A stretch of 64,000 bases of DNA from Corylus avellana. Its lineage: Eukaryota > Streptophyta > Magnoliopsida > Fagales > Betulaceae. The stretch is from NCBI RefSeq assembly GCF_901000735.1, contig NC_081547.1, positions 16,724,217 to 16,788,216 on the forward strand. Reading direction: 5' to 3'. Both the position numbers and the translations under genes were made by a program. A model generated the notes under the pieces. The model was not told where the DNA came from. It did not search any database and saw only the letters and a list, made by a program, of their open reading frames with translations. Of this stretch, positions 1,262-62,333 are shown one piece after another (position 1 is the first letter of the stretch; every line of letters starts with the position of its first letter).

Positions 1262-1267
1262 CGTTTT

Positions 1268-1286
1268 TGGCGCCGTTGCCGGGGAT
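1268..1286 (+). other. Primer binding site of E1, complementary to tRNA-Asp
   Basis: TGGCGCCGTTGCCGGGGAT lies six bases after the LTR end. It matches the complement of the plant tRNA-Asp 3' end including CCA, as expected for Athila/Tat-type Ty3/gypsy elements. Confidence 0.88.
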
Positions 1287-3326: not shown

Positions 3327-3357
<31 letters not shown>

Positions 3358-17970: not shown

Positions 17971-18019
17971 AAAAAAGGCACCACATTATCCTGGTTAATT
18001 TTCTCTTCTTTATATATAT

Positions 18020-18591
18020 ATACCAACAACGGAGGGGGAGGAAGCGCAGTATGTAGGAGTAGGGGAAGGGGATAGTTATGCAAAAGAACATTTAAATCAA
18101 AGCAGTAAAACCAGGCATGAGGCGGTAATGACAATAGTATAATGAAATTAAAGAACTGAAATTAAAATTAGTTGAGAAGCTGAAATCAAAACTTGAAAGT
18201 AATATTGATAAAATATCTTACAAAAGTAAGTAATAGAACTTACAGAAGTAAGTGATAGAAGAAGAGATACAAGAAGAAATCGAAATAAGAAAGCAGGGGA
18301 ATGGCTAGAGAGCTTGGGTAGTAAGCTTCACCAGTTATAAGCTTTTGCCTTCCAATGGGGAGAGGGGAGCCGTTATATAAGCAAATTACAAGGAATAAAA
18401 CAAAATACAATTATGAAGCAAATAGTGAAAAGTAGATTCCGCAGTACTGTGTAGTCCGCGGTCAAAAGTAAACAGTAGAAAGCATGCGCACTGTAGAGTC
18501 GACGCCAATCTGGAACAGTAAAAGTAATCAATCTGGAACAGTAACTGTCGGCACTGTAGTGTCGGCAGACAAAATATGAACAGTGAGTATG
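18020..18591 (-). repeat. Pararetrovirus copy A, distal terminal repeat (intergenic region)
   Basis: This 572-bp stretch is about 95 percent like 33805-34386 at the other end of copy A. Homology stops inside the primer-binding-site sequence (TTGGTAT on the minus strand, then TATATA of host DNA). This is what is expected if a circular viral genome integrated with overlapping ends and its minus-strand discontinuity at the primer site. It holds the TATA box CTTATATAA (minus, 18373-18381). Confidence 0.75.
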
Positions 18592-18900
18592 AACAGTAAT
18601 CCTGCACAGTGTTGTCAGCAACAGTGAACAGTAAAAGTGAACAGTAGTTTAGCATAGTAATCTTCAAATAGTGGTGAATAGTAGTTCGGAGAATTTCTTT
18701 GAGAAAATTCTTGAAGAAGGGAGAAACCAGCCGTTATGAGCCAGTCTGCAAATCTGAACAATAACTAGCCGTTTATGGAACCAGTCTAAGGACCAAGAGC
18801 CGTTATGAGGCCATTCTTGAAGTTTGGAGAGAAAAGGCTGTTAAAAGCCAGTCTGGAATCTTGGAAATTAGTCGTTATGAGGCCATAAAATCACAAATCT
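18440..18900 (-). promoter_or_regulatory. Repeat-rich enhancer region of the pararetrovirus promoter
   Basis: Two families of short repeats lie upstream (minus-strand sense) of the TATA box. About ten copies of ACAGTA/AACAGTG occur between 18440 and 18680. Five copies of a unit like GCCGTTATGAGGCCAGTCTG, spaced about 33-38 bases, lie between 18730 and 18885. Their position is that of an activating region; the function is inferred. Confidence 0.5.
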
Positions 18901-19318
18901 TCTATCCCGGGATAGGGATAATAATCTTGGGAATCTTCAAAATATGGGGGAACCTGAATAGGACTTTGAGACGATGCTTCAGATTTTTCTTCTTCATCGT
19001 TGTTATTAGAATCATCATCAAGGGCAGCAAGGAGAGCCTTGATCTTTTCTTTCTTCTTTGAAGACTTCTTCTTAGAAGAACTGGATGAAGTAGTGGGAGA
19101 AGAACCAGGAAGTTTAGTCTTGTCTTCCGTTGGGGAAGTGGTGAAAGTACTGGGAGTTATTAAAAGAGGGGATTTAATCTAGGGCAAGGTAGGAGCTGTA
19201 GGGGTTTGAGTCAATTATTTAACAGAAATGACAATGCAGTCAACTAGTGAGCATTTATCCCACCATTTGGCATACCAATGTCCTTGGATTTTGTCTTCTA
19301 AAAGGATATATTGCCATT

Positions 19319-20143
19319 TCAGAATCCAAGGAATTTTGAATTTTTTAACAAGTGCAACATAGGGGGAAACTTGGAACCATAAGCATCGACTTTGTAAGCA
19401 ATTTTAAAATTCTGGAAAGCTTCAATTAATTGGAGAGGAAGAATTTCAGGGAGAATTTCAAATTGCATCCACCACCTGGAGAACCAAAGAGGAAGAATTC
19501 CGCATAAATTTTTATCAAAATTAATAAACCAAGAATGGTCAAAGTTCGAGGATTCGTAAAGCAAAAATTTAAACCAAGCTTCAATATAATCATAATAAGT
19601 AAAAGGAATATTAAATCCGTTAAGGGATTTTGGAGCAGAGGGATGTACTCCCCATTCTTTTTCAGAAATAATTCTTTTAAAATAAACACTATGGAAAAGT
19701 AATTTATGAGGATTAATTTTGCAATAAATAGTCTTAAAAAAGACAGAATCAGTTTGACGCAAAATACTAGAATAATATGCTAAGTTCTTTCGAGGATGTT
19801 CAGGAATCCAGTGGAAATTAGGAGGAAAATAGGAGAGGGCAATATCTCTGGCAGATTTAGAAGAAGGTGATCGATTCATTTCAATGAAAAATAAATTCTG
19901 AGAATAAGGAAGATTCACATAGGTAGACGTTTTATCATACCTAACAAAAGGAGGACGGGGTCTTTGGGAATTATCCGCAAAGGGATCATAGGGAGAAGCA
20001 AGGGTATTGGAATAAGAAACCTGGTGGGAACCAGGGTTGAAGGGAGAGAATCTGTTGGTAATAGCAATCGAAGAAATAGGAAGGGAAGTAGCAATAGTAG
20101 ACTCTGGTTTCAAGGCCAGAGCCTTATCCTTTTTGCTTGCCAT
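19319..20143 (-). pseudogene. Pararetrovirus second ORF, protein of unknown function
   Basis: An open frame of 274 codons from the ATG at 20143 (MASKKDKALALKPES); an upstream in-frame ATG at 20224 would add a hydrophobic leader and is less likely. The N-terminal 60 residues are polar and Pro/Ser-rich. The rest is rich in aromatic residues (EKEWGVHPSAPKSLNGF, IPFTYYDYIEAWFKFLLYE, LPLWFSRWW) and looks globular. I recognise no enzyme or zinc motif. It lies downstream of protease, where some endogenous caulimovirids (florendovirus type) carry a separate ORF of unknown function; assignment to that ORF is inference. A Ser/Lys-rich, interrupted tail may continue to about 18900. Confidence 0.55.
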
Positions 20144-20264
20144 TTTGGCACTACAAAAATTCAGGGGGAAAGAAATTAGGAATAAAGTAGTTAAAATCTT
20201 TAAAAACATGCAAAATAATGTCATAATTATTTTGATGCAGTGTTTTAAATTAGAAACAATAGTA

Positions 20265-20269
20265 ATAAT
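20265..20269 (+). other. Target-site duplication (left) of gypsy A
   Basis: ATAAT here and at 29702-29706 flank gypsy A exactly: a 5-bp duplication typical of Ty3/gypsy integrase. Confidence 0.9.
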
Positions 20270-21631
20270 TGATAAGCGCCAAAATATTCATATTTTCAGC
20301 CCTTATCTTACATGTTTTAATCATTTGGTTCTGGTTAATTAGGTCATTTTACTTCCTTTTTGTATTTTTGATGTTTTTACAGGCTTTTGGAAGAAAGTGA
20401 AGTAAAACTAGGTGATTTGGGCTCAAAAAGAGAATATGGGAAAATTGGAGCTCCCTGGTACTGCGATCAATCGCAAGGTACCTACGATTGAGCGCAATAC
20501 CAGAGGAGATGCTGCACGAGCCAGGCCAGGAGCGATCGAGCGTAGGCAAAAGAGGCATCGATCGCAGACGTGCAATCGAGCGTACACGGGCTGCGATCGA
20601 GCACACCCGTGCGCAGGAGGCATTCCAAGTGGCGGCTACAATGTCCCTATTTCCATATTAGGGTTTTTCAAACTCCAAATTGTAATTGGACTGAAACCCT
20701 GCGAAAACCCAAGGGTTTACAACTTTTCCAAGGACTTCTAAAGCCTATAAATAGACTCCTAAGCCTTTAGAATAGGTAGGCTGGGAGAAGGGAGAAGAAT
20801 AGGAGCTCTCAAGTCAAGTCTCGGGTTTATTCTTTCTTTTCTTTTCTTTTCCTTTATGAAGATGTTTAATATCAACTCTATGTGTAGCTAACTTATTTAG
20901 TAGGGCTAGATTGAAGCCCTAGTTATGTTAAATTAATATTTCAATATTGGCGCCTTGTGATGATCATGTTGTGCTATTTAACTTGATTAATACCTGCTTG
21001 CATGAATTCCTCATATGTGTATGCCTGATCAACATGTGCATGTGGTATGGACTTGTTAGTTAGATCAATTTGGATGACCGAGTCCTGGGTTTAACTTAAG
21101 TAACAAAAGAATCCACACCGCGATTCTTGGGTTAATCAACATAGGGAACTAGGAGTATGTATCCATGCCCTAGGCCTTGTGTGTTTGTCGATTTCCATAG
21201 AACATATGCTTTTCTAAAGAACAACTTAGTATAGACATGCTAAATCCTTTAGGAAAGAAAAGAATTAGAGCATGGACCAAGTGGCTAATTCGTTGCTTAG
21301 GGAAATCAATAGCTTAAGGCGTTAGAGTTTAACCCTTAGGTTGGCAAACATTAAATATGCATAACTTGATCAAAGCATTGGCATATTGAAATACTAGTTT
21401 AATATAATTAGTGGTGGATATCAAAGCCCTGCCTTTACCCTTTATTATCATCTCATCAATAATCAATCTTAGTTTAGTTTTGCTTAAGGAATTTATTTTT
21501 AAATATAAATTCAGCAATCCTCGTGGGAATGATCCTGTACTTGCACCATATACTACTCTGTTGACCTTATGCACTTGCAGGTAAAACGTATAATTATTTA
21601 CCTATTAATTTAGGTATATTTTTGCACAACA
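20270..21631 (+). repeat. 5' LTR of gypsy A
   Basis: TGATAAGCGCC...GCACAACA, 1,362 bp. Palindrome-rich block at 20461-20610 and TATA box TATAAATA at 20746-20753, followed by GAGCTCTCAAGTCAAGTCTCG of the presumed leader. Confidence 0.92.
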
Positions 21632-21637
21632 AGTTTT

Positions 21638-21656
21638 TGGCGCCGTTGCCGGGGAT
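21638..21656 (+). other. Primer binding site of gypsy A (tRNA-Asp)
   Basis: TGGCGCCGTTGCCGGGGAT, six bases inside the 5' LTR, identical to the E1 site. Confidence 0.9.
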
Positions 21657-21800
21657 TGCGGCGAATTTTGTTTAAATTTATCTTCCTTTAGTTTTGATAG
21701 TTTAAATTTTAAATTTTAAATTTAATAATAGCAAAAAAAAAAAAATTCAAAAAGAATTTTTGTTTCCCTTCACTTTTCTATTTCTGTTACAGGTTGCGGA

Positions 21801-22999
21801 GTGGCATTCTATGATTGCGATCAATCGTCAGCCAAGTGCGATCAAGCGCACTGCGATCGAGCGCAGTTCCAGAGAGCATCCGGACCAGGCAGTGCTGAAG
21901 CTGCCAAGTTCATGCAAGGTCGTCGATCTCAAGCCTCAACCGTTTTTCCCCTCGATCCTGAAATTGAGCAAACAATTCGACAACGACCTAGAGATAAAGA
22001 AGGAGAAGAAATAGTTAAAATGGAAGACATGCCAGAAAATCCAATTGGGCCAAGACCCCTAGAAGCAAATCCACCACGAGTGAGGAGACCTATGAAGCAA
22101 GCGTACGTGCCAACAAACCTCCATCAACCCTCATGCATAGCATATCAACCGGAGGTGGAGGGCAGTTATTATATCTCTCCCCAAATCCTCAATGCATTGA
22201 CCCACTTCAGAGGCACAACAACTGAGGATCCCAACTTGCATCTCAAGGAATATTTTGACTTATGCAAGTTGCAAAATGTTCAAGGCCTCACTCAAGAGAG
22301 ACTCAGGTTAGTTCTTTTTCCTTTTTCTTTGAAAAATAATGCTAAACTGTGGTACAATTCCCTGCCTGCAGAATCCATTCATACTTAGGAAGAATTGACC
22401 ACCAAGTTCCTGAAGAAGTTTTTCCCAGCTCAAAGGACAAGGCAACTTAGAAGGGAGCTGCAATCGTTCCAACAAAGAGATGGAGACCCTTTCTTTGAAG
22501 CATGGGATCACTTCAATACGATGCTCCTTAAGTGTCCAAATCACAACATATCTCAAGATGACCAGGTACAAATCTTTTATGAAGGGTTAGATGATTGCAA
22601 CAAGGGTGTTGTTGATACAGCTTGTAGTGGTGTGCTGATGGAAAAGAGTAGTGAAGAAGCCATAAAGCTTTTTGAGATGTTGAGTGAACACACCCAACAA
22701 TTTCCATCTAAAGGGAAAGGCATATACGAAGAGAGCACCAATGGAGGAATTCAGGCTCAAATGGCTGCCATGGAGAAAAAGCTGGACATGTTCATGAAGG
22801 CTATGACTAATCATAGCAGTGCTCCTGTTACACAAGTCAAGGTATGTGCCATATGTTCTCATTTAGATCATGTTACTGAGAACTGCCCTTTGTACTCATC
22901 TGCTGATCAGGAGCAAGCCAATTATGGGGAACAACACACTTATCCTCCCAAGAACAATCCTTACTCCAACACTTATAATTCAGGGTGGCACAACCACCC
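21801..22999 (+). pseudogene. gag: gag pseudogene of gypsy A
   Basis: Reads from MAFYDCDQSSAKC (or the internal MQGRRSQAST at 21912) through RRPMKQAYVPTNLHQPSCIA and the gag core to a TAG at 22386-22388, where E1 has TGG (Trp). The frame reopens at once and continues to a zinc knuckle CAICSHLDHVTENC near 22848-22889. It is cut at 22999 by an inserted foreign LTR. The first part of this frame is the palindrome-rich leader and may not be translated. Confidence 0.85.
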
Positions 23000-24288
23000 T
23001 GATAAGTGCCAAATATTGCATATTTAGACCCCTTTATTTACATTAGTTAATCCTTTAGTTGTGTCGTTATTTAATATTTTGTGCTAGTTTTGTGTTTTTA
23101 GTATTTTGTAGGTCGTTGAAGAAAAACTACAGCTTTAAAGGGAAAAATGCGAAGTTTGGAAGAAAGCATACTTTGAGAAGACCTAGATGATATGGTTAAG
23201 TTTAACCAAATCCAAGAAATGGGTAAATCGGATTAAGGATAAGATTGGATAAAATTTCGAATTGGATTCAAATTCAGATTCTACACGTCTCAGTATTTTG
23301 ACCATAACTTTTCGTTCACATATCCGATTGAGGTGATTCAAGTGGCGTTGGAAAGCTAACCCAAAATAATACAATTCATTGTGAAATAGGATTTTCCTAA
23401 TTCGGACGTTTACTATTCCAAAATCGTCCCGTAATTAAATGGTACAAACCTGGACGAATTGTATCCGATTTCAACTTGTAAAACCCTAAGTTTTAGGTCT
23501 ATAAATAGGGAATTATCAGATTAGTTGAGGGGGCTACGAATTTGAAGATTGCAGAGGAGAAAGAAGAGAGTTTAAGGTTTTCCTAACTTTTGAATCTCTA
23601 CTTTGTGATTCTTATTTGTAAGTACTCAATTTTACATTATGAATTCAATCAATTTTGTTTTGTCTTTCAATAACATGAGAGGCTAAACCTTCAACTAAGG
23701 TTGAAGATGAAGCCTCACTTATGATTAGCAATTTTGTTTCATGTATGTAATATTTCCCAATTTAATGGTTTAATTGCTCTATTGTTTTACTTCTAATCAA
23801 TTGGATTGAATAACTCTTGGATATCTTTTGTGATTCAAGGATACACTTGATGATTTAAGATTATTCAATATAATTGATTGCTTGGTTTTCTTTGTTAAAA
23901 ATTGGATTTCCCCTGTGATTTATTCTCTGGATACAATTGATGTTTTGATAAAGATTTGATATTTTCTTGTGATTTACGGATACAGTTAATGATTTGATCG
24001 AATATTGGATTTCTTTTGTGATTTGGGTTATGAATGGATACATGGGATCTTTTGATTAATTCTTTGAAGCAATAGTAAAACAAACTTAAGATTTATATGT
24101 GAGAACTTTGGGAAATATTATAGATCATGAAATTATGTTGTTATGAATTTGTGAGTGTGGATTCTGAAACTTTAGTGTTTCGTCATAAGATTTCAATCAC
24201 TTTAAATTGCTCATGCTTTTGTTTTTTTTCATTCAAACAGAAAAATCTCTCAAAAATTTGGAACTAGATTAGGATTTAATTAATTTAG
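23000..24288 (+). mobile_element. Foreign LTR nested in gypsy A gag, running into gap 3
   Basis: Abruptly after ACAACCACCC of gag, TGATAAGTGCCAAATATTGC starts a different AT-rich sequence with LTR character: TATA box CTATAAATAGG near 23499, then a leader. From about 23815 to 24060 there are about four imperfect repeats of a unit with TTTTGTGATT and GGATACA.TTGATGATTTGA. It is not the Athila-like LTR of this window; the family is unidentified. Any internal part of it is lost in the gap. Confidence 0.65.
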
Positions 24289-24388
24289 NNNNNNNNNNNN
24301 NNNNNNNNNNNNNNNNNNNNNNNNNNNNNNNNNNNNNNNNNNNNNNNNNNNNNNNNNNNNNNNNNNNNNNNNNNNNNNNNNNNNNNNN
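24289..24388. other. Assembly gap (100 N)
   Basis: Hides the rest of the nested LTR and the gag tail, protease and N-terminal RT of gypsy A; sequence resumes in mid-RT, at the point matching 37691 of gypsy B. Confidence 0.98.
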
Positions 24389-25732
24389 AGGATGCTATTT
24401 GGTTTATGTAATGCCCCTGCTACATTCCATAGATGCATGATGAGTATCTTTTCAGATATGGTAGAGAAAACCATTGAGGTCTTTATGGATGACTTGAGTG
24501 TTTTTGGGTGTAGTTTTGATGAATGTCTACACCATTTGAAAAACGTTCTAAAGCGGTGTGAAGAATGCAACCTAGTGCTCAATTGGAAAAAATGCCACTT
24601 CATGGTTCAACAAGGCATTGTATTGGGTCATACTATTTCAAGCAAGGGCATAGAAGTGGATAAGGCCAAGATAGAAATCATCTCCAAACTTCCCCCACCT
24701 CTGACAGTCAAGGGGGTAAGGAGTTTTCTTGGACATGCCGGATTCTATAGAAGGTTTATCAAGGATTTCTCCAAGATCTCTAGACCCCTCTGTGCATTGC
24801 TTGGGAAGGAAGCCAAGTTTGACTGGACCAAAGAATGCATGACGGCCTTCAACAAGCTAAAAATGCTGCTCACCTCTGCGCCAATTATGAGAGCATCTGA
24901 ATGGAGCTTACCCTTTAAGCTCATGTGTGACGCCAGTGACTTTGCCGTGGGAGCCGTTTTGGGTCAAAGGATCAATAAGGTACCTCATGCCATTTGTTAT
25001 GCCTCTAGAACATTAAATGATGCCCAGCTGAATTATTCTACTACTGTGAAAGAATTATTAGCTGTCATATTTGCTTTGGAGAAGTTCAGGTCATACCTAA
25101 TTGGCTCTAAGATTATTATATTCACTGAGCATGCTGCGTTGAGATATTTGTTTACCAAGAAAGATGCCAAACCAAGACTGATCAGGTGGGTATTACTACT
25201 ACAAGAATTTGACCTTGAGATTAGAGATAAGAAGGGCAGTGAAAATGTGGTGGCAGATCACTTATCCAGATTACTCCATGAGGAGGAAGGAGATGAGCTC
25301 CCACTAAATGAAAATTTCCCAGATGAGCAGTTGTTCGTAGTTGATATCCAACTCCCATGGTATGCAAATATAGTGAATTACATCACTGCCAAGGTCTTTC
25401 CCCCAGATATGTCTAGCCAAGAAAAGAAGAGATTGATATCGATATCTCGACAATACCATTGGGACAACCCCTATTTATTCAAATTTTGCCCTGATCAAAT
25501 CATTAGAAGATGTGTCCTAGAAAATGAGCACTTGAGTATTTTGCAGCACTGTCACCAGTTTGCTTGTGGTGGACACTTTGGGGCAAAAAGAACAGCACTT
25601 AAGGTATTACAGTCTGGTTTTTATTGGCCCAATATGTTTAAAGACGCTTTCTTGTTTTGCAACTCTTGTGATAAATGTCAACGGACAGGTAACATCTCTT
25701 CTAGAAATCAAATGCCATTACAAAATATTTAG
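24389..25732 (+). pseudogene. pol: pol of gypsy A, part 1: RT (C-terminal part), RNase H, integrase zinc domain
   Basis: Starts inside RT with [20 protein letters not shown] and the catalytic FMDDLSVFG. The connection follows, then RNase H ([28 protein letters not shown]) and the integrase HHCC zinc-binding segment ([15 protein letters not shown]...CNSCDKCQR). The third RNase H acidic position reads [10 protein letters not shown] instead of [10 protein letters not shown] (Asp to Glu). The frame stops at TAG 25730-25732 where gypsy B has CAG (Gln). The N-terminal half is in the gap. Confidence 0.9.
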
Positions 25733-26671
25733 GTTGTAGAACTCTTCGATGTGTGGGGTCTTGACTTCATGGGACCATTCCCTCATTCATTTGGCTATTC
25801 ATATATTCTTGTGGGTGTGGATTATGTGTCTAAATGGGTCGAGGCTGTCCCCTCAAGGACTAATGATCACAAAGTGGTTGTGAAGTTTTTGCAGGAAAAC
25901 ATTTTTGCTAGATTTGGAACACCCAGGGCAATCATTAGTGACGGGGGAAGTCACTTTAACAACTATGCTTTTACTTCTGTGATGAAGAAATATGGCATCA
26001 CTCATAAGGTTGGCACTCCATATCATCCTCAAACCAGTGGCCAAGTAGAGATCAGCAACAGAGAAATCAAAGGCATCCTTGAAAGGACAGTCAACCCCAA
26101 TAGGAAGGATTGGTCACTACGCTTGAACGATGCACTATGGGCTTACAGGACTGCTTACAAGACACCTATCGGTATGTCTCCATATCGATTGGTCTTTGGG
26201 AAAGCATGCCATCTACCAGTGGAATTGGAACACAAAGCATATTGGGCCATCAAGAAGTTTAACTTCGATATGAAGCAAGCTAGCGACACAAGGAAGCTCC
26301 AACTAAATGAATTTGAGGAATTAAGGCGTGATGCATATGAGAATGCCAAACTCTACAAGGACAGAACCAAAGCATACCATGACAAACAACTGATCAGGAA
26401 GGAGTTTCAAGTAGGACAGAAGGTTTTGATCTATAATTCAAGATTGAAACTCTTCCCTGGAAAGCTTAAATCAAGATGGTCTGGGCCCTACATTGTTACC
26501 CCAGTATTCCCTCATGGAGCCTTGGAAATTCACGACCCTCAAACCGACCAATCATTCAAGGTCAATGGACACAGAGTCAAGCCATATCTTGAAGTAAATT
26601 TAGTACCAAGAGATGAAGATTTGGCACTCCACTCCATCCAAAATGGAGCATCCACTTCTAGACCACATTGA
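25733..26671 (+). pseudogene. pol: pol of gypsy A, part 2: integrase core and C-terminus
   Basis: Same frame as the previous part, after the single TAG. Integrase core acidic residues are visible in GLDFMGPF and [10 protein letters not shown], and the glutamate region in [20 protein letters not shown]. The C-terminal GPY/F-like segment ([20 protein letters not shown]) follows. It ends [12 protein letters not shown]. No chromodomain, consistent with the Athila/Tat branch. Confidence 0.9.
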
Positions 26672-28339
26672 GAGAGGACCACAGTCTGGCTGAAGACGTA
26701 AAACTTAACGCTCATGGGAGGCACCCTATAGCATATCCTTTTATTTTTTGTTGTTGTTTAAGTTATATTTTGTTGTGTTTTCATTTGTGTTTAGTATTTT
26801 AGGTGTTTTTGGTATTTTGTCATTTCTTTTCCATTCTGTTACTGCGATCGATCGCACCACACATGCGATCGAGCGCAGGTCTCCATCTGTGAGGCTGCCG
26901 CACTCTGATAGTGCGATCGAGCGCACCTGGCAGCATCTCCTAGTTATTTTTGTTTTCATTCATTTTAGTGTTGATGCTTTTCACTTGTTTGTGTGTTTGA
27001 TTATTTTGCAGGGGCAAGTGTGCTTCAATTCAAGTTTGGGGTGTGCTACGAGCCATGCTTTCCACGACTATGTCCACCATCTCCTGGGTACATTCTTTCC
27101 TTAATCTAGACACATTGGGGACAATGTGTCATTTAAGTTTGGGGGTATGGGCACACATGTTCACACACTTTGTCCCAATTTCATGTTGTTTGTGTGTTGT
27201 ATAAAAAAAAAATATATATATATATATATCTTTATGCATGTTCTTGTTGCTCAAAAATTTTAGGTTGATCTAGGAAGAATTGAGGCTTGAATTCATCAGT
27301 GAGCTTAAAGTTTTGAACACATGATCTGATGAGTGAATCTATTAGTTTGGTTACTTGCTTAAGCCAGTTGAAAAATCACATGTTTGATCTGATCACACAA
27401 GCACATTAGCACGTAATTTGTGAGGAATGACATAAGGTCTAATGTGTGTGTTTTTGCATCTTGGATGAAATTGGATGAACTATTAGATGACGCTTGGCAT
27501 ATATATTGAAAAAAAAAAAAGAAAAAAAGAAAAGAAAAAAAGAAGTGAAATAAATGATCATTGATGGCTTTTCACTGAGTAACTGGACCTCTTGTTTCAA
27601 AGCACTGAGTGTTCACGTCAAAAGGTGAAAAATTTGGATTTGATCATTGTCATGGTTAGTTGGTTTTGTAGCCTTTTTGACTCGAGTTAGTAGGTCCTTA
27701 GGGGTGTCTCTACACCTAATGCCCTAAAACCACCTGGTTTGGGAGCCATTGACTTAACACTCGTTACAAGGGTCAATTAGAAAGCTTAAGAGAACCAACA
27801 TTGCACAACCTGACCAAAAAAAGAAAAAAGAAAACAGAAAAAAAAAAGAGAGAGAAGAAATATGCCTTGTGTCATTCTAATAGGAATTTCAGTAAATTTT
27901 GAGATTTGGAAACATTTACATATTGGAAAGATTTGGAAGCCTCATAATTTTGTGCTAATTCACTTTACACTGTTTTCAAACTTGTGATATTTTAGCATGT
28001 CCTTTGTAAGTAATTGCACTTTGAGATTCCAATTCATTATGAAGATGGAGTTCATCTTTTTAAGCTTGCTAATGAATAAAAATCATGATCTTGAAGTGAT
28101 GATTTAATTTTTGGGATGACATGAACTGTGCATGATGTTTGTGGGTAACATTTCTGGAAAACCCTCACGAGACTTCACTCGTCCACTAGGGAATTCCTAG
28201 TTGTTTAAAAGGCTTGTTGCATATGCTAAATGCAATCGTACATCCCACGAAAGATGGATTTATCTATTGTTTTCTGTTTTTCCATTCCTGTTTTTGTTTT
28301 GTATTGCTAAGGGACTAGCAATATGTAAGTTTGGGGGTG
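26672..28339 (+). other. 3' non-coding region of gypsy A
   Basis: About 1.7 kb without supported coding. It holds a palindrome block (26842-26925), two internal G-rich tracts resembling the polypurine tract (27026-27036, 27135-27146), purine and TA microsatellites, and the true polypurine tract (TAAGTTTGGGGGTG, 28326-28339) against the LTR. Confidence 0.75.
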
Positions 28340-29701
28340 TGATAAGCGCCAAAATATTCATATTTTCAGCCCTTATCTTACATGTTTTAATCCTTTGGTT
28401 TTGGTTAATTAGGTCATTTTACTTCCTTTTTGTGTTTTTGATGTTTTTACAGGCTTTTGGAAGAAAGTAAAATAAAACTGGGTGATTTGGGCTCAAAAAG
28501 AGAATATGGGAAAATTGGAGCTCCCTGGTACTGCGATCAATCGCAAGGTACCTGTGATCGAGCGCAATACCAGAGGAGATGCTGCACGAGCCAGGCCAGG
28601 AGCGATCGAGCGTAGGCGAAAGAGGCATCGATCGCAGACGTGCGATCGAGCGCACACGGGCTGCGATCGAGCACACCCGTGCGCAGGAGGCATTCCAAGT
28701 GGCGGCTACAATGTCCCTATTTCGATATTAGGGTTTTTCAAACTCCAAATTGTAATAGGACTGAAACCCTGCGAAAACCCTAGGGTTTACTACTTTTTCA
28801 AGGACTTCTAAAGCCTATAAATAGACTCCTAAGCCTGTAGAATAGGTAGGCTGGGAGAAGGGAGAAGAATAGGAGCTCTCAAGTCAAGTCTCGGGTTTAT
28901 TCTTTCTTTTCTTTTCTTTTCCTTTATGAAGATGTTTAATATCAACTCTATGTGTAGCTAACTTATTTAGTAGGGCTAGATTGAAGCCCTAGTTATGTTA
29001 AATTAATATTTCAATATTGGCGCCTTGTGATGATCATGTTGTGCTATTTAACTTGATTAATACCTGCTTGCATGAATTCCTCATATGTGTATGCCTGATC
29101 AACATGTGCATGTGGTATGGACTTGTTAGTTAGATCAATTTGGATGGCCGAGTCCTGGGTTTAACTTAAGTAACAAAAGAATCCACACCGCGATTCTTGG
29201 GTTAATCAACATAGGGAACTAGGAGTATGTATCCATGCCCTAGGCCTTGTGTGTTTGTCGATTTCCATAGAACATATGCTTTTCTAAAGAACAACTTAGT
29301 ATAGACATGCTAAATCCTTTAGGAAAGAAAAGAATTAGAGCATGGACCAAGTGGCTAATTCGTTGCTTAGGGAAATCAATAGCTTAAGGCGTTAGAGTTT
29401 AACCCTTAGGTTGGCAAACATTAAATATGCATAACTTGATCAAAGCATTAGCATATTGAAATACTAGTTTAATATAATTAGTGGTGGATATCAAAGCCTT
29501 GCCTTTACCCTTTATTATCATCTCATCAATAATCAATCTTAGTTTACTTTTGTTTAAGGAATTTATTTTTAAATATAAATTCAGCAGTCCTCGTGGGAAT
29601 GATCCTGTACTTGCACCATATACTACTCTGTTGACCTTGTGCACTTGCAGGTAAAACGTACAATTATTTACCTATTAATTTAGGTATATTTTTGCACAAC
29701 A
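28340..29701 (+). repeat. 3' LTR of gypsy A
   Basis: 1,362 bp, same length as the 5' LTR and nearly identical. TGATAAGCGCC...GCACAACA. Palindrome block 28531-28680. Followed by ATAAT (29702-29706). Confidence 0.92.
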
Positions 29702-29774
29702 ATAATATGCGCCATGATCTAGGAATTGGAATGAATAATGAATTCTGGGAAGACACAATTGTTAAGGGGGGTAC

Positions 29775-30155
29775 TTAAGTAAGATAAAGTCCTAATTTTA
29801 CAGTTGAAATACTAATCTCGTCAATAGAGAATGGATAAAGTAAATCAATGAAAGGCATTCCAAGAATTACTCTTTCAGTCAAATTTTTAACAAGAACAGC
29901 AAAGATATGAAAACGAACATTATTCTGGCAAACATGAACGTTATTTAATGCATGTTTGATATGCAACTTGTTTCCACTGGCAGAATTCAATTTCTCAGTG
30001 GATCTTTGAAAATATTTGTTAGGAATAAATCCTTCTTGAATGCAATTTAAATCAGAACCAGAATCAATCAAAGCAATAATATCAAAAGCATAATCATGAG
30101 AAATAGTAATATGAATTTTTGAATACCATTTGGGAGGAACAATTCTATTAATCAT
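29775..30155 (-). pseudogene. Pararetrovirus copy A: aspartic protease region
   Basis: The frame carries the retropepsin signature LIDSGSDLNC and, about 60 residues on, VILGMPFI. Such a protease matures the viral polyprotein. Compared with copy B (43003-43893) this copy lacks about 130 bases just after the ILGMPFI part and about 280 bases upstream. Reverse transcriptase should follow, but after about 70 non-homologous bases the gypsy insertion begins. Confidence 0.8.
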
Positions 30156-30225
30156 ACTGACAACCTTAACTTCATCAGAAAGGGGCTTATAGCTGGACTC
30201 AGCTTCATCTTCATGCTCAGCTTTG

Positions 30226-31194
30226 TTATTCTTCTTTTAATTCAGGGTTTCCAATTTTTGAAATCAAAGTAAGAAGTAAATCTTCTTGTTCTTCTGATTT
30301 GGTCAGAATCGAACAAGTTTTTGCATTGCAGCAAGATTCAGCACAACCAAATTTAAAACAATTTCCAGAAATCTTAGAAGCAGAGTGATAATCAGAATCA
30401 AAGGAGGATAGAAAATCATTATCAGAAGAATAATCAGAAAAATCATTGTTTTGAAATATTCTAAAATATTTGTCTTTACTGTTTTCATCAATGTCTAAAG
30501 CATTAATCTCTTGTTTAATCTTTTTGGGAGGTTTTGGGCACTTATTAGCATATTGTCCCGTTTCTCCGCAATTGAAACATTTATCTTTTGAAAAATATTT
30601 TTCAAATTTGGAATCTTTATTCTTTTTAGGATTTTTAGAAAAATTCTTATTAGGTCTGTTAAATTTTCTTTTCTTATGACTATTGTAGTATGGAGGGGGT
30701 GATTTCATGAAAATCTTGCCAGATTTCTTCCTATGCTTACGAGAAGGAGCAATAGGAGGCAATCCGAACTGTTCACAGAAATTTCCCATTTCATACTTAG
30801 CTTTCTTGGCATTCTTTAATTGTTGTCTGATCATCTTCTGATCAATACACATTTTAATACCAAGTTTCTTGACAGTAGAGAATAAATCTCCATAAGTCAA
30901 GTTTTCATAATCAATAAGACCAGTATCAGAATTAATCAATTCATCTTTAACTTTGTGAGCAAATAATGAAGGCAATCCATCAGTAAACTTTTCTTTCCAA
31001 TAAGGTTTTTGACTGTCAGGTCTCACCATAACTCGAGAAAGAAAAACATCTTGATACCATCTATAGTCAGACATAGTAGGGCATCGAAGATTGTTCAAAT
31101 AATCAGAAATACGAGAAGTAATATTAGAAGGAGTACCAACAAAATGTTTGATAATTGTATAGATTAAAGTATTGACGCCATCAGGTTCACCCAT
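30226..31194 (-). pseudogene. Pararetrovirus copy A: coat protein region
   Basis: Capsid domain (DYRWYQDVFLSRVMVRPDSQ, LPSLFAHKVKDELI), a Lys/Asn-rich basic stretch, and a zinc knuckle. The knuckle reads CFNCGETGQYANKC, with Gln replacing the His of CX2CX4HX4C; copy B has His there. A stretch of acidic and serine residues follows. The N-terminal part is disrupted by a small inversion and a deletion. Confidence 0.85.
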
Positions 31195-31291
31195 ACCAAT
31201 GTGTTCATTAAAAATGGGTAAGCTTTCTTCATTACACTTTACTGCTGTCCTGATCTGGTTTCTTCTTAGTTCAGTGAGATGGAATAAGATG

Positions 31292-31402
31292 AATCATGCG
31301 AATGGAATATTGATGGTTTGTCTGAGCAAGAACTGCTTAATAAGATGAATCATATGTCTATGGTTGCTAATGCCTATCGTACTAATCACAATAAAAGCCA
31401 AG
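31292..31402. other. Micro-inversion in copy A coat region
   Basis: About 110 bases here (GCGAATGGAATATTGATGG to AAAGCCAAGCTGA) are the reverse complement of about 45029-45140 in copy B. The rest of the surrounding sequence is collinear except for missing blocks on both sides. Confidence 0.85.
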
Positions 31403-31512
31403 CTGAGATTGGAGAAATCTTTCTTCAAATTGTAAATCAGGAGGAGTAGGTTTTGGGTGAAAATTCTTTGTAGGATTGAAAGATCTGGACCCGTCAAAGA
31501 TCCTTTGGAGTT

Positions 31513-32756
31513 TCAGCTCCAAGTCAATCTTGCCAAAGTCTTGTTCAAGAATTTTAATATCAGAATCAGTAGAATCAAGAGAAATTTCAGAATCAGAAGA
31601 AGAAGTTTTTTAGAGATCGCAAAATTCTGTCCAGAAGTACTGGCATGGGTAGTTTTTAACTCAGTCAGTTCAGAAAGTAATTGGTTCACTTTCTCAAGGT
31701 TCATTTGAGAAGTAGTTTTCAAACCAGAAGATTTCTTTAAATCAGGAAGAGAAATCAGAGGTTTTTCAGTCTTAGAAGGAGTGGAAGAAATTTTTAAATC
31801 ATGAGAGGGAGAAGGAATTTTCTCTTCAATCCAATCCAATTGTTGTCCTATAATATGAAGAGATTGGCTAGCAAAATTATTTTGCTCGATAATTTTCCTA
31901 TCGTTATCAATAGGATCTTTATCATGAGTTTTGAAAGGGGAACATTTAACAATGACTTTATTGCAATCAAGAAGAGTATTTTCAAGAGGGGGATGAGAAG
32001 ATCTGACAATAGATTTATCTTTTTAACAAAATTCTTTTTGACAACATTCAAAACATTATCGACAGGGAAATGTTTTTGAAGATAATCAAAAAATAAAAAA
32101 TGTTTTTGGGACTCAATCATCATCTCAATCCATTTGACTTTAATGAGATTTCGTTCCTTTTCAGAATATTTGGCACGGTAAGCATGCGGCAAATCATGAT
32201 TTTCTTTTGAGTTAAAATCCTTGGACAAAGCTGGCCAATCAATAACAGAAAAGAAATCTTTAATAGGAGCAGTAATAACATTACACTGATGAGGAAGATT
32301 ATTGAGAAGAGGAGCATTAAAATCAGAAGCAGAAGGAGAAACAGATCCACCTTCATCATCTGTTGGGGGATCATTTCTAGTAGAATAAGAAGTAGAGGAA
32401 ACTTGGGAATCGGTAGAAATTCCTTTAAGTTTTAAATCAGGGTTAACAGCAGGATAAAGAGGAGGGTTAAGACTTTCATCCACATCCTTATCACGACGTC
32501 GGAGCCCTTCTATGGTTGTGGAACCAGCAAAAGAATTCCTTCGTTCGTTAACCAAAAGAGGTCTTTCAATTCTGCTTGAAAGTCCTAAATCAGAAAAATT
32601 GATTTTAACAGATCCATCCAGATATTGTTGGATGTAATCAAGATTAGAGGCATCATTCACTACTCGAGAAGGTTTTGTAACATTTTCCAAAAGCCATTCG
32701 TTGGGGAGGTCAATCTCATCCCATCGAATCATTTTTCGGAGTTTTAATAATAGCAT
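31513..32756 (-). pseudogene. Pararetrovirus copy A: polyprotein segment between movement and coat proteins
   Basis: Starts IRWDEIDLPNEWLLENV, a segment typical of caulimovirid polyproteins after the movement domain. A variable serine-rich stretch and WPALSKDFNS...YSEKERNLIKVKWIEMM follow. The frame shifts near 32020 and again at a T-run near 31610 (also present in copy B, so it predates the duplication). The stretch around LDWIEEKI and LEKVNQLLSELTEL looks coiled-coil, as in virion-associated proteins. Not separable into finished proteins. Confidence 0.75.
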
Positions 32757-32799
32757 TCTAAGTAGAACTTTGAATTAACAAAGTAGATTCACCTAGATT

Positions 32800-33459
32800 C
32801 TAGATCACAGCTTGTGGATCTAGATTTGTTTTCATCAATTTATAATAAATACGGTAGATGATAGCAAGGGGTTTGCTACCTTCTTCTTTATTATAACCAG
32901 AAGTAAGAATATTCAAAGTTAAAGCTTTAAGAATATGAACATCATTCAAAGCAAGAGAAATATTAGGGAAAACATCAAAATGGACAGGGCCATTAAACAG
33001 AGAAGACTGAATCATACCAAGAGTACTGGTACGAAAATCAACAAATCTAGCATCACGCAAACATAACAAAATAGAAGCATTGACACCAAGTCGAGTCAAA
33101 GGCTTGACTGCAACTTGAACAGAACCAATATGCAAAAATTTATAACCTTTAGCAAGAGAATCATTAACAAATTTCTTATTAAAGAAGGTAATAGTTTGGT
33201 TATCACCCGATATAGCAAATGTTTGTTCAATAGTTTTAACAGAATATGAAATCTTAAAAGAAGATTTTAACCATGAAGTAGTATAAACATCTGAAGCAGA
33301 AAGCTTGGGGATGTTCCATTTATCAAATTTAAAATCATTATCACCTTCAACAGAAAATTGTTCAAAATTAACCACGTCAGGTGGTAAGCTAGAACTAGAG
33401 CTAACAGAAGAATTAGATTTCCACATTTTGACACACAAACTACACACAAAATCACTCAC
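32800..33459 (-). CDS. Pararetrovirus copy A: movement protein (30K superfamily)
   Basis: 220 codons open from MSDFVCSLCV. 30K-type movement proteins enlarge plasmodesmata for cell-to-cell spread. Supporting segments are DVYTTSWLKSSF, SLAKGYKFLHIGSVQVAVKP and the family motif LRDARF (residues 134-139), followed by DFRTSTLGMIQSSLFNGPV and SLALNDVHILKALTLNI. A stop after DPQAVI separates it from the polyprotein, which in relatives is often fused, so even this intact frame may be a broken fusion. It begins about 340 bases after the primer binding site, the expected first-ORF position. Confidence 0.85.
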   Translation of the reverse strand: MSDFVCSLCVKMWKSNSSVSSSSSLPPDVVNFEQFSVEGDNDFKFDKWNIPKLSASDVYTTSWLKSSFKISYSVKTIEQTFAISGDNQTITFFNKKFVNDSLAKGYKFLHIGSVQVAVKPLTRLGVNASILLCLRDARFVDFRTSTLGMIQSSLFNGPVHFDVFPNISLALNDVHILKALTLNILTSGYNKEEGSKPLAIIYRIYYKLMKTNLDPQAVI

Positions 33460-33798
33460 TGGGCATCGGCTTACAGAATCTCATCCTAGGTACTCACTCA
33501 CAAGGCAAACTTCCTAAGCATGTCCTTCCTAGACGCAAAACTATCCACACATACCCTTGGCCTAACACACAGTTCCTTCTTCACGCCCTAACACGCCAAC
33601 CCAGGCTTTCAACGAGACTTACAGATACCTCACAAACTGAACTGACGGGGTGGTGGACTACCATTTAACAACTAGGAGCTCTTTACAAAGAAAGGTTGAC
33701 AGGGAGTAAATAAAAAGGTTAACAACAAGTCGAGACTCAGGGAGGTCAAGAGGGAACAGGGTGTACATCAAGGCAGCAAAGAGATCCCAACTCTTATG

Positions 33799-33810
33799 GC
33801 TCTGATACCA
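33799..33810 (-). other. Pararetrovirus primer binding site (initiator tRNA-Met)
   Basis: TGGTATCAGAGC on the minus strand, the standard caulimovirid primer site complementary to initiator tRNA-Met, between the TATA box (34169-34177) and the movement protein start. Confidence 0.88.
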
Positions 33811-34386
33811 ACAATGGAGGGGGAGGAAGCGCAGTATGCAAAATAATGCAGGGAGTAGGGGAAGGGGATAGTTATGCAAAAGAGCATTTAAATCAAAGCA
33901 GTAAAACCAGCCATGAGAGGGTAATGACAATAGTATAATGAAATTAAAGAACTGAAATTAAAATTAGTTGAGAAGCTGAAATCAAAACTTGAAATTAATA
34001 TTGATAAAATATCTTACAAAAGTAAGTGATAGAACTTACAGAAGTAAGTGATAGAAGAAGAGATACAAGAAGAAATCGAAATAAGAAAGCAGGGGAATGG
34101 CTAGAAAGCTTGGGTAGTAAGCTTCACCAGTTATAAGCTTCTGCCTTACAATGGGGAGAGGGGAGCCGTTATATAGGCAAATTACAACAGATAAAACAAA
34201 ATACAATCATGGAACAAATAGTAAAACTAGATTCCGCAGTACTGTGTAGTCTGCGGTCAAAAGTAAACAGTAGAAAGCATGCGCATTGTAGAATCGGTGC
34301 CAATCAGGAACAGTAAAAGTTGTCAATCTGGAACAGTAACTGTCGGCACTGTAGTGTCGGTAGACAAAATATGAACAGTGAGTATG
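33805..34386 (-). repeat. Pararetrovirus copy A, proximal terminal repeat with promoter and leader
   Basis: 582 bp matching 18020-18591. It contains the minus-strand TATA box CCTATATAA (34169-34177) and the ACAGTA repeats. It breaks off abruptly at 34386 (GTGAGTATG), where the distal copy continues AACAGTAATCC. Confidence 0.8.
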
Positions 34387-35838
34387 AGTAGAACTTTGAA
34401 TTAACAAAGTAGATTCACCTAGATTCTAGATCACAGCTTGTGGATCTAGATTTGTTTTCATCAATTTATAATAAATACGGTAGATGATAGCAAGGGGTTT
34501 GCTACCTTCTTCTTTATTATAACCAGAAGTAAGAATATTCAAAGTTAAAGCTTTAAGAATATGAACATCATTCAAAGCAAGAGAAATATTAGGGAAAACA
34601 TCAAAATGGACAGGGCCATTAAACAGAGAAGACTGAATCATACCAAGAGTACTGGTACGAAAATCAACAAATCTAGCATCACGCAAACATAACAAAATAG
34701 AAGCATTGACACCAAGTCGAGTCAAAGGCTTGACTGCAACTTGAACAGAACCAATATGCAAAAATTTATAACCTTTAGCAAGAGAATCATTAACAAATTT
34801 CTTATTAAAGAAGGTAATAGTTTGGTTATCACCCGATATAGCAAATGTTTGTTCAATAGTTTTAACAGAATATGAAATCTTAAAAGAAGATTTTAACCAT
34901 GAAGTAGTATAAACATCTGAAGCAGAAAGCTTGGGGATGTTCCATTTATCAAATTTAAAATCATTATCACCTTCAACAGAAAATTGTTCAAAATTAACCA
35001 CGTCAGGTGGTAAGCTAGAACTAGAGCTAACAGAAGAATTAGATTTCCACATTTTGACACACAAACTACACACAAAATCACTCACTGGGCATCGGCTTAC
35101 AGAATCTCATCCTAGGTACTCACTCACAAGGCAAACTTCCTAAGCATGTCCTTCCTAGACGCAAAACTATCCACACATACCCTTGGCCTAACACACAGTT
35201 CCTTCTTCACGCCCTAACACGCCAACCCAGGCTTTCAACGAGACTTACAGATACCTCACAAACTGAACTGACGGGGTGGTGGACTACCATTTAACAACTA
35301 GGAGCTCTTTACAAAGAAAGGTTGACAGGGAGTAAATAAAAAGGTTAACAACAAGTCGAGACTCAGGGAGGTCAAGAGGGAACAGGGTGTACATCAAGGC
35401 AGCAAAGAGATCCCAACTCTTATGGCTCTGATACCAACAATGGAGGGGGAGGAAGCGCAGTATGCAAAATAATGCAGGGAGTAGGGGAAGGGGATAGTTA
35501 TGCAAAAGAGCATTTAAATCAAAGCAGTAAAACCAGCCATGAGAGGGTAATGACAATAGTATAATGAAATTAAAGAACTGAAATTAAAATTAGTTGAGAA
35601 GCTGAAATCAAAACTTGAAATTAATATTGATAAAATATCTTACAAAAGTAAGTGATAGAACTTACAGAAGTAAGTGATAGAAGAAGAGATACAAGAAGAA
35701 ATCGAAATAAGAAAGCAGGGGAATGGCTAGAAAGCTTGGGTAGTAAGCTTCACCAGTTATAAGCTTCTGCCTTACAATGGGGAGAGGGGAGCCGTTATAT
35801 AGGCAAATTACAACAGATAAAACAAAATACAATCATGG
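34387..35838. repeat. 1,626-bp tandem repeat, unit 2 (cut by gap 4)
   Basis: Repeats 32761-34212 without visible difference, including the movement protein frame, the primer site and the TATA box, and ends at the gap. Confidence 0.9.
34426..35085 (-). CDS. Pararetrovirus movement protein, second identical copy
   Basis: Protein identical to that at 32800-33459 (all 219 residues), with its own primer site (minus, 35425-35436). The upstream promoter is cut by the gap after CAATCATGG. Either a very recent tandem duplication or an unmerged contig overlap. Confidence 0.8.
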   Translation of the reverse strand: MSDFVCSLCVKMWKSNSSVSSSSSLPPDVVNFEQFSVEGDNDFKFDKWNIPKLSASDVYTTSWLKSSFKISYSVKTIEQTFAISGDNQTITFFNKKFVNDSLAKGYKFLHIGSVQVAVKPLTRLGVNASILLCLRDARFVDFRTSTLGMIQSSLFNGPVHFDVFPNISLALNDVHILKALTLNILTSGYNKEEGSKPLAIIYRIYYKLMKTNLDPQAVI

Positions 35839-35938
35839 NNNNNNNNNNNNNNNNNNNNNNNNNNNNNNNNNNNNNNNNNNNNNNNNNNNNNNNNNNNNNN
35901 NNNNNNNNNNNNNNNNNNNNNNNNNNNNNNNNNNNNNN
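35839..35938. other. Assembly gap (100 N)
   Basis: Separates pararetrovirus unit 2 from mid-gag of gypsy B. The viral left flank, 5' LTR, primer site and most of gag of gypsy B are missing here. Confidence 0.98.
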
Positions 35939-42985: not shown

Positions 42986-43002
42986 ATAATATGCGCCATG
43001 AT

Positions 43003-43893
43003 CTAGGAATTGGAATGAATAATGAATTCTGGGAAGACACAATTGTTAGGGGGGGTACTTAAGCAAGATAAAGTCCAAATGGGAATAGTCCTAATGCGAA
43101 TAGGGCTCTCATCTAACTCTAAACCTAGAGGATCTCTAAACTTCATGCTCAATCTATTAATATCAATTTCAAATTTAGAGGCAAAATGAATTTGAATATT
43201 AATACCAAATTTCACAGTTGAAATACTAATCTCGTCAATAGAGAATGGATAAAGTAAAGCAATGAAAGGCATTCCAAGAATTACTCTTTCAGTCAAATTT
43301 TTAACAAGAACAGCAAAGATATGAAAACGAACATTATTCTGGCAAACATGAACGTTATTTAATGCATGTTTGATATGCAACTTGTTTCCACTAGCAGAAT
43401 TCAATTTCTCAGTGGATCTTTCAAAATATTTGTTAGGAATAAATCCTTCTTGAATTCAATTTAAATCAGAACCAGAATCAATCAAAGTAATAATATCAAA
43501 AGCATAATCATGAGAAATAGTAATATGAATTTTTGAATACCATTTGGGAGGAACAATTCTATTAATCATACTGACAACCTTAGCTTCATCAGAAAGGGGC
43601 TTATAGCTGGACTCAGCTTCATCATCATGTTCAGCTTTGTTATCATTTTCAGAAACATTTTCTGGAAAACATTCTTTAAGATTTAAAAGCAAAAAATATT
43701 GTTGTAAATCTTTGTTTTTAGTGTAAACATTATGCAAGCCATTTTGCAAGTTAACAATATCTTTCTTGATGTTACCAATCTCATGCTGCAAGTTTGGGAT
43801 AGTAACTACTTTGGATTTTTGTTTTGAAAATCGTTTCAAAGTATCCTCAAGAGAGATTTTAGTGTTAACAGGTTTTTCAAAATCTTTTACCAT
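43003..43893 (-). pseudogene. Pararetrovirus copy B: linker and aspartic protease
   Basis: Two frames. 43893-43456 holds MVKDFEKPVNTKISLEDTLK, a coiled-coil-like linker and the protease start LIDSGSDLN, ending at a TGA where copy A has a Cys codon. 43404-43003 holds the remainder (VILGMPFIALLYPFSIDE) and a tail of about 40 residues absent from copy A. The frame ends just before the gypsy B insertion; no RT follows. Confidence 0.8.
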
Positions 43894-45281: not shown

Positions 45282-45572
45282 GTCAATCTTGCCAAAGTCT
45301 TGTTCAAGAATTTAATATCAGAATCAGTAGAATCAAGAGAAATTTCAGAATCAGAAGAAGAAGTTTTTTAGAGATCGCAAAATTCTGTCCAGAAGTACTA
45401 GCATGGGTAGTTTTTAAGTCAGTCAGTGCAGAAAGTAATTGGTTCACTTTCTCAAGGTTCATTTGAGAAGTAGTTTTCAAACCAGAAGATTTCTTTAAAT
45501 CAGGAAGAGAAATCAGAGGTTTTTCAATCTTAGAAGGAGTGGAAGAAATTTTTAAATCATGAGAGAGATTCA
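45282..45572 (-). pseudogene. Pararetrovirus copy B: end of the homologous region
   Basis: Continues the polyprotein (SSGLKTTSQMNLEKVNQLLS) with the same T-run frameshift as copy A. Homology to copy A stops at CATGAGAG about 45572; the rest of the virion-associated-like and movement regions expected further right is missing. Confidence 0.75.
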
Positions 45573-62328: not shown

Positions 62329-62333
62329 AAAAC

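What the first reader, a model, noticed from the sequence alone, without database searches (positions are those of the whole stretch)
18020..34386. A pararetrovirus copy with movement protein, coat protein and protease but no reverse transcriptase, bounded by terminal repeats
Seen: primer site and promoter, movement protein (33459-32800), virion-associated-like region, coat protein, protease (to 29775), then after removing the gypsy insertion (ATAAT duplication) only about 70 bases to a different ORF (20143-19319), then the promoter region again. No RT or RNase H signature is present anywhere between protease and the second ORF, and copy B also ends at the same protease edge. Known: caulimovirids place RT-RNase H directly after protease; two-component genomes have been proposed for some endogenous florendoviruses. 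Inference: either an RT deletion fixed before the gypsy insertion, or a genuine RT-less genome component that used a helper's RT.
Basis: partly seen in the sequence, partly recalled or inferred. Interest (0 to 1): 0.8.

Follow-up and report, generated by a model that had tools for sequence, protein, structure and literature searches.

The report
RT-less half of a two-part pararetrovirus
This stretch of a plant genome holds an old copy of a plant virus that lacks its own copying enzyme, and the same genome carries dozens more copies with the same gap plus a matching set of copies that have the enzyme but lack the coat protein, so it looks like one half of an extinct two-part virus of a kind first described in 2014.

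Summary
The locus carries movement protein, coat protein and protease, then ORF2, with no viral RT; one gypsy element (5-bp duplication) interrupts the protease-ORF2 junction. Copy B shares that insertion, so it is not independent evidence. The window's own 370 Mb genome decides the question. At 63 loci (55 clusters, 10 contigs) coat protein is followed by ORF2 within 1.3 kb, 57 at 900-1000 nt, too close for RT. The two gypsy flanks abut in 7 of 7 RT-less copies of other lineages and 7 of 8 close relatives; none of these 15 has RT at the junction. Of 28 loci read, 13 hold an RT-less copy, 8 an RT-bearing coat-less copy, none a copy with both, 7 are incomplete or divergent; one further locus is monopartite. 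This matches components A and B of bipartite florendoviruses (Geering 2014) and the complementary non-autonomous pararetroviruses of Chen 2017. A local deletion is refuted. It is a new member of a known kind. Open: no coat-less partner as close as this copy's own sub-lineage was found, and flanks were not compared.

The parts
33798..33810 (-). tRNA-Met primer binding site, exact 13-mer (motif recalled, then searched)
   Evidence: 7 matches with up to 2 mismatches, 0.96 expected; exact only here and at 35424-35436
34169..34175 (-). TATATAA promoter-like element of the intergenic region (second copy at 18373-18379)
   Evidence: consensus match only
32800..33459 (-). movement protein (MP), 219 aa, GTG start as listed
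   Evidence: PF01107 3e-16; 76-81% aa identity in related copies of the genome where it is near full length
31848..32756 (-). region between MP and coat protein with DUF7588 (the 'virion-associated-like' region; function not shown)
   Evidence: PF24496 2e-12
31513..31839 (-). continuation of the same region in another frame (decayed)
   Evidence: no Pfam match
30226..31194 (-). coat protein domain and zinc knuckle
   Evidence: PF22909 2e-8; CCHC 0.008, below its cut-off; 354 relatives in proteins, 127 matches in own genome
29775..30155 (-). aspartic protease; tail shortened by about 125 bp relative to copy B
   Evidence: PF00077 5e-6
20265..29702 (.). gypsy-type element with one copy of the 5-bp target duplication; LTRs 20270-21632 and 28340-29702 (98.09%)
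   Evidence: TSD at 20265-20269 and 29703-29707
24289..24388 (.). 100-N assembly gap inside the gypsy element
20154..20249 (-). C-terminal remnant of RNase H, just upstream of and overlapping the ORF2 start region in another frame
   Evidence: Smith-Waterman to the RNase H end of the monopartite relative L045: 0 of 5000 shuffles reach it, also when cut before the ORF2 overlap; nucleotide match 79%, E 6e-19, which runs on into the ORF2 start
19319..20224 (-). ORF2, frameshifted at its C-terminal end; main start probably 20143 (inference from relatives)
   Evidence: 30 relatives at 43-63%, alignment, frames, 132 matches in own genome
18020..18592 (-). second copy of the intergenic region (terminal repeat), ending 5-6 nt inside the primer site
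   Evidence: 93% to 33805-34387; boundary sequence
18011..18022 (.). (TA)6 run at the viral left boundary, the integration context reported for florendoviruses
   Evidence: PMC4241990 passages
42987..45565 (-). copy B: protease (with in-frame stop), coat protein and linker, carrying the same gypsy insertion; keeps about 125 bp after the protease that copy A lacks
34387..35838 (-). exact 1452-bp repeat of 32761-34212 (intergenic region + MP), ending at an assembly gap

Best explanation
The locus is an endogenous, decayed copy of the RT-less component (component B type) of a bipartite caulimovirid of the florendovirus kind. Shown: the component has an intergenic region with a tRNA-Met primer site, then MP, DUF7588 region, coat protein and protease, with ORF2 directly after; compared with a monopartite relative in the same genome about 1.3-1.4 kb (RT and most of RNase H) is missing. 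Shown: the same genome holds complementary coat-less, RT-bearing copies (component A type). Inferred: in infected cells A supplied RT-RNase H that reverse-transcribed both pregenomic RNAs, B supplied the coat that packaged both, and both were captured repeatedly in the germ line. Inferred from the shared insertion site: this copy, integrated at a (TA)n tract, was later cut by a gypsy insertion and then partly duplicated (copy B).
For: Domains present and no viral RT. Own genome: 63 of 125 coat-protein rows have ORF2 within 1.3 kb on the same strand, 57 at 900-1000 nt, on 10 contigs, 55 clusters. Of 28 loci read, 13 hold a copy with coat but no RT, 8 a copy with RT but no coat, 0 a copy with both; 7 are incomplete or divergent. 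The window's protease-side flank (583 nt, from copy B) aligns over its whole length in 6 of 7 of these RT-less loci (14-583 in the seventh), with the ORF2-side flank following at once. Among 8 close relatives of this copy, the flanks abut in 7; coat-protease-ORF2 is uninterrupted in 5, L043 has a viral fragment inserted a little further on, L040 is rearranged upstream, L041 has lost the protease; RT is found in none of the 8 stretches. A-B MP nucleotide identity: mean 89.0, maximum 97.4, 42 pairs. The protease tail reads openly up to the ORF2 start in 2 of the 5 loci for which it was printed (L018, L024), the C-terminal extension described for component B. In the protein database 8 of 120 listed relatives have RT missing between protease and RNase H or ORF2, and 5 lack the coat region.
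Against: No coat-less RT-bearing copy of the window's own sub-lineage was found: MP of the coat-less loci read is at most 82.4% to it. The 740-nt upstream regions of A and B copies average only 81.1%, against the 90% criterion of Geering et al. Flanks of the 63 loci were not compared, so independent integration is inferred from spread and divergence only; 8 of the 28 loci were picked for long open frames. The RT search scored 65 of 2602 candidates and the coat search 124 of 522, so counts of absence there are weak. Copies with both coat and RT do exist: L045, 14 coat rows followed by RT, and several database proteins with coat or zinc-knuckle matches plus RT. The ~47 residues after the protease in copy B are not explained: RNase H profile -0.6 bits, 680 of 4097 scored shuffles reach it; the best of nine pairwise tests had 7 of 2000. 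The join across the gypsy crosses an assembly gap. Genus placement by RT phylogeny was not possible.
Confidence: 0.9

Rival explanations
1. Simple local deletion of RT in this one integrated copy, before the gypsy insertion.
For: Copy A does lack other pieces, about 125 and 271 bp, that copy B has.
Against: The same protease-to-ORF2 junction is present in 7 of 7 RT-less copies tested and in 7 of 8 close relatives, and the spacing is alike at 57 loci.
Confidence: 0.02
2. A non-autonomous satellite-like virus dependent on an autonomous (monopartite) helper rather than half of a two-part virus: RT-less, but not paired with a dedicated coat-less partner.
For: A monopartite relative with coat protein and RT exists in the same genome: L045 read, 14 coat rows followed by RT. 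The window's own sub-lineage has no matching coat-less partner among the loci read. Chen et al. describe such a commensal pair (abstract and passages).
Against: Coat-less RT-bearing copies are common (8 of 28 loci read; 51 of 65 RT rows have no scored coat match upstream, a capped list) and share MP with RT-less copies at up to 97.4%, while the monopartite L045 coat protein is 60-67% identical to the window's.
Confidence: 0.15
3. Amplification inside the host genome: one RT-less integrated copy multiplied by duplication or by retrotransposon enzymes.
For: Some copies look like local duplicates (copies A and B of the window; neighbouring rows on C5 and C9); 63 loci fall into 55 clusters.
Against: Copies fall in several lineages with 74-90% flank identity to the window, on 10 contigs, and share MP similarity with coat-less copies. 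Flanks were not compared.
Confidence: 0.05

Closest known systems
Component B of bipartite florendoviruses (Vitis vinifera B and D virus, Oryza sativa B virus, Sorghum bicolor virus; Geering et al. 2014, PMC4241990)
   Same: MP, coat and protease present; RT and N-terminal part of RNase H missing; ORF2-like extension after protease; 5.5-6.9 kb (here 6353 nt without the gypsy); coat-less component A in the same genome; (TA)n context
   Different: Another, unnamed host genome. The ORF2 of most coat-less copies read is only 30-41% identical to the window's. The window's own B sub-lineage has no matching A found. Florendovirus reference sequences were not at hand for a direct comparison.
ePVCVL / ePVCVL2 complementary non-autonomous pararetroviruses of rice (Chen et al. 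2017, PMC5491270)
   Same: One partner has MP, CP and PR without RT/RH, the other MP, PR and RT/RH without CP; related intergenic region and MP (abstract and passages)
   Different: Grass genomes. There the intergenic regions are 99.3% alike between partners; here A-B upstream regions average 81% with a wide range
Monopartite copies of the same genome (L045 and similar)
   Same: Gene order coat, protease, (RT, RNase H), ORF2 after the DUF7588 region, and the RNase H end overlapping the ORF2 start
   Different: Keep RT and RNase H: coat-to-ORF2 spacing about 2.2 kb (10 of the 14 rows where ORF2 was found) instead of about 0.94 kb

Membership tests
Bipartite florendovirus, component B | MP, coat and aspartic protease domains | tested here: met
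Bipartite florendovirus, component B | RT and N-terminal RNase H missing, C-terminal RNase H part kept | tested here: met
   no viral RT in window; RNase H end remnant, 0 of 5000 shuffles; homology to L045 stops shortly after protease and resumes at the RNase H end
Bipartite florendovirus, component B | Protease polyprotein extended by an ORF2 homologue | tested here: met
   ORF2 directly after protease; open up to the ORF2 start in 2 of 5 related copies printed; the window copy itself is broken by stops and frameshifts, so the fusion is not readable there
Bipartite florendovirus, component B | Unit of 5.5-6.9 kb with intergenic region and tRNA-Met site | tested here: met
   6353 nt, primer site
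Bipartite florendovirus, component B | A component A (RT-bearing, coat deleted) in the same genome | tested here: met
   8 of 28 loci read: L010, L015, L016, L017, L027, L028, L031, L032
Bipartite florendovirus, component B | MP above 87% and intergenic region above 90% identity with a component A | tested here: inconclusive
   MP reached by the main lineages (A-B mean 89.0, max 97.4); 740-nt upstream region A-B mean 81.1; window versus A: MP 79.6-82.4, upstream 70.2-80.8
Bipartite florendovirus, component B | Copies are independent integrations (different flanks) | not tested
   only spread over 10 contigs and 55 clusters
Genus Florendovirus | RT falls in the florendovirus clade | not testable with these tools
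   the component lacks RT; no reference RT set at hand
Genus Florendovirus | ORF2 of 45-58 kDa without known domains, in another frame from ORF1 | tested here: inconclusive
   longest relatives 407-449 aa, mass not computed; no Pfam family for the window ORF2 or P0002, one sub-threshold match for P0006; in L045 the RNase H end and ORF2 start are in different frames
Genus Florendovirus | Integration next to (TA)n | tested here: met
   (TA)6 at 18011-18022 against the viral end; one side only
Caulimoviridae | 30K-type MP, caulimovirid coat domain, retropepsin, tRNA-Met primer site | tested here: met

The most novel reading that the evidence does not exclude
The RT-less component outlived several partners. 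The window belongs to a B sub-lineage about 18-20% diverged in MP from the coat-less copies read, yet it keeps the same junction. An RT-less pararetrovirus lineage may therefore have persisted over a long span by borrowing RT from whichever A-type or monopartite relative was present, while the ORF2 of the two components diverged to about one third identity and took on different roles.
Probability: 0.3. Interest if true: 0.6.

Novelty: new member of a known kind. Interest (0 to 1): 0.42.

Why it matters
Two-part genomes among reverse-transcribing viruses are known only from genome fossils (Geering 2014, section and passages seen). Here one compact plant genome holds three states together: monopartite, coat-less and RT-less copies, the last in several lineages. 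Whether the two parts co-diverged, or the RT-less part switched helpers, can be tested by counting and tree building alone.

Tried and rejected
Rejected: a local deletion. Rejected: copy B as independent support, since it has the same gypsy insertion. Dropped: my early reading of the ~47 residues after the protease in copy B as RNase H; the profile tests failed. Only the stretch next to ORF2 is RNase H.

IMG/VR scans with ORF2, MP and the ORF2 alignment found no relative. A PDB sequence search of ORF2 gave only two antibody chains at E 0.3-0.5. A protease tree put the window outside the 26 closest database relatives, with weak support for its exact place (93/38), and 7 of the 8 RT-less database relatives keep an RNase H piece that the window tail does not match significantly. 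Their RT loss may therefore be a separate event or show different erosion; I could not decide.

LTRs: LTR1A-LTR2A 26 mismatches against LTR2A-LTR2B 43, the reverse of the order expected for a shared insertion; gene conversion or a scaffold swap is possible, not resolved.

A search for a partner of the window's own sub-lineage by MP or intergenic region in the whole genome did not complete; L046, fetched for that question, held no viral match. A whole-genome protease search also did not complete. Rows left out before counting: CP 125 of 127 listed rows typed (two secondary pieces dropped), ORF2 131 of 132, RT 65 of 87 (22 secondary pieces dropped), MP 150 of 150.
Full report
What is there. On the minus strand the locus reads: intergenic region with TATATAA at 34175 and an exact tRNA-Met primer site at 33810-33798, MP 33459-32800, a DUF7588 region, coat protein with a sub-threshold zinc knuckle, and protease to 29775. 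Then comes a gypsy element (LTRs 98.1% alike, same 5-bp duplication on both sides), ORF2 20224-19319, and the intergenic region again to 18020 (93% over 584 nt). The viral left end lies 5-6 nt inside the primer site and abuts (TA)6. Without the gypsy the unit measures 6353 nt. RT pieces of relatives give significant matches only at the gypsy RTs of the window.

Limits of the window. Assembly gaps lie inside the gypsy (24289-24388) and at 35839-35938. Copy B (42987-45565) has the same gypsy at the same site, so it descends from the same event. It keeps about 125 bp after the protease and 271 bp before it that copy A lacks. The exact 1452-bp repeat ending at the second gap is either a very recent duplication or an assembly artefact.

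Relatives in proteins. ORF2 has 30 relatives (43-63%), the longest 407-449 aa, none named beyond 'hypothetical protein'. The coat protein has 354, of which 120 were listed. A search with the protease region of a relative found 127 and listed 120 proteins. In 8 of the 120 (P0102, P0151-P0155, P0159, P0165) the protease is followed by an RNase H piece or ORF2 without RT; P0165 runs from protease into the ORF2 start in one frame. In 5 (P0166, P0168, P0173, P0259, P0267) the coat region is missing. Others have RT, some of them coat or zinc-knuckle matches as well, and many are too short to tell. A protease tree puts the window next to, not inside, the closest 26.

Own genome. The window is C7:16724217-16788216 of an unnamed 370 Mb assembly of 12 contigs. 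MP gave 150 scored matches of 270 candidates, ORF2 132 matches from 131 scored of 476 candidates, coat protein 127 from 124 of 522, and P0156 (protease-RT-RNase H) 87 rows from 65 of 2602 candidates; all are lower bounds. I read 28 loci chosen from the MP list (20 of the top 21 by score, 8 among those with long open frames). Thirteen hold MP-DUF7588-coat-protease-ORF2 without RT: L009, L012, L013, L018, L022, L024, L026, L029, L030, L033, L034, L035, L036 (L013 also has a piece of an RT-bearing copy beside it on the other strand). Eight hold MP-DUF7588-protease-RT-RNase H-ORF2 without coat in between: L010, L015, L016, L017, L027, L028, L031, L032 (L028 has a 28-residue coat fragment upstream of MP). 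No copy has both. Seven loci are incomplete, rearranged or divergent: L011, L014, L019, L020, L021, L023, L025. A further locus read on suspicion, L045, has coat, protease, RT, RNase H and ORF2 together: a monopartite relative.

Counts by position. Of 125 coat-protein rows, 63 have ORF2 within 1.3 kb on the same strand (57 at 900-1000 nt, 10 contigs, 55 clusters; distances extrapolated to the ends of the query), 14 are followed by RT (ORF2 found in 10 of them, at about 2.2 kb), 7 have ORF2 at 1.3-6 kb without a scored RT, and 41 have neither match. Of 94 ORF2 rows at 64% identity or more to the window's, 0 have a scored RT within 3 kb upstream; of 37 at 50-63%, 13 do. Of 65 RT rows, 14 have a coat match upstream. 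The RT and coat lists are capped, so zeros there are weaker than the spacing.

The junction. The protease-side flank (583 nt up to the LTR, taken from copy B) aligns through to its end in 7 of 7 RT-less loci at 74-80%, with the ORF2-side flank following immediately. Eight close relatives of the window's ORF2 were read separately as stretches of about 2.6 kb (L037-L044). The flanks abut in 7 of the 8. In five (L037, L038, L039, L042, L044) coat, protease and ORF2 follow without interruption at 86-90% flank identity. L043 (83%) has an inverted intergenic piece inserted shortly after the junction, L040 keeps the junction but is rearranged upstream, and L041 has lost the protease. None of the eight shows RT. 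So the gypsy landed in a junction that already lacked RT. Compared with L045, homology stops shortly after the protease and resumes at the RNase H end, so about 1.3-1.4 kb is missing; what fills the short stretch between is unexplained.

Partnership. MP nucleotide identity between coat-less and RT-less copies averages 89.0% (42 pairs, 6 coat-less by 7 RT-less loci, maximum 97.4%), much as within each class (90.7 and 86.9); the window is 79.6-82.7% from both. The main lineages therefore look conspecific across the two classes by the MP criterion of Geering et al. (above 87%; section read). Their intergenic criterion (above 90%) was not met on average in my 740-nt upstream pieces (A-B mean 81.1), and the window's own sub-lineage has no partner found. 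How the pair worked is inference: RT in trans from the coat-less part, coat in trans from the RT-less part.

Known work. Geering et al. 2014 (PMC4241990; section on bipartite genomes read; passages) describe components A and B with these features in grapevine, rice and sorghum. A review (PMC10377300, passages) adds beet and a possible non-segmented parental form in grapevine. Chen et al. 2017 (PMC5491270, abstract and passages) describe RT-less and CP-less complementary pararetroviruses in rice. Passages of PMC9719215, PMC5766536, PMC5452135 and PMC13308828 were also seen. Verdict: a new member of a known kind, with an unusually complete set of states in one genome.

Noticed in passing
32761-34212 and 34387-35838: Exact 1452-bp repeat of intergenic region plus MP, the second copy ending exactly at an N gap: very recent tandem duplication, collapsed tandem array, or contig-end artefact.
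   Followed up: partly
L010, L015, L016, L027, L028, L031, L032: ORF2 of these coat-less copies is 30-41% identical to the window's ORF2 (most 31-35%), while their RT is 71-88% to a database relative and RT-linked monopartite-type ORF2 is 50-62%: the ORF2 of the coat-less part seems to have diverged most.
   Followed up: partly
L017: Coat-less RT-bearing copy whose ORF2 C-terminal part is of the RT-less type (65%): a possible A/B recombinant.
   Followed up: no
L013, L021, L028: RT-bearing and other viral fragments lie next to each other in opposite orientations within 9.5 kb: possible compound integrations.
   Followed up: no
19319-19420: The frameshift near the ORF2 C-terminus gives nearly the same short ending as database protein P0001, about 60% identical: shared or parallel change next to an A-run.
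   Followed up: no
1-5757 and 60472-63887: Further copies related to the same gypsy element (about 82-94% identity), in both orientations, around the locus.
   Followed up: no
L043:1418-1964: Inverted intergenic region, 83% to the window's, inserted between the RT-less junction and ORF2.
   Followed up: partly
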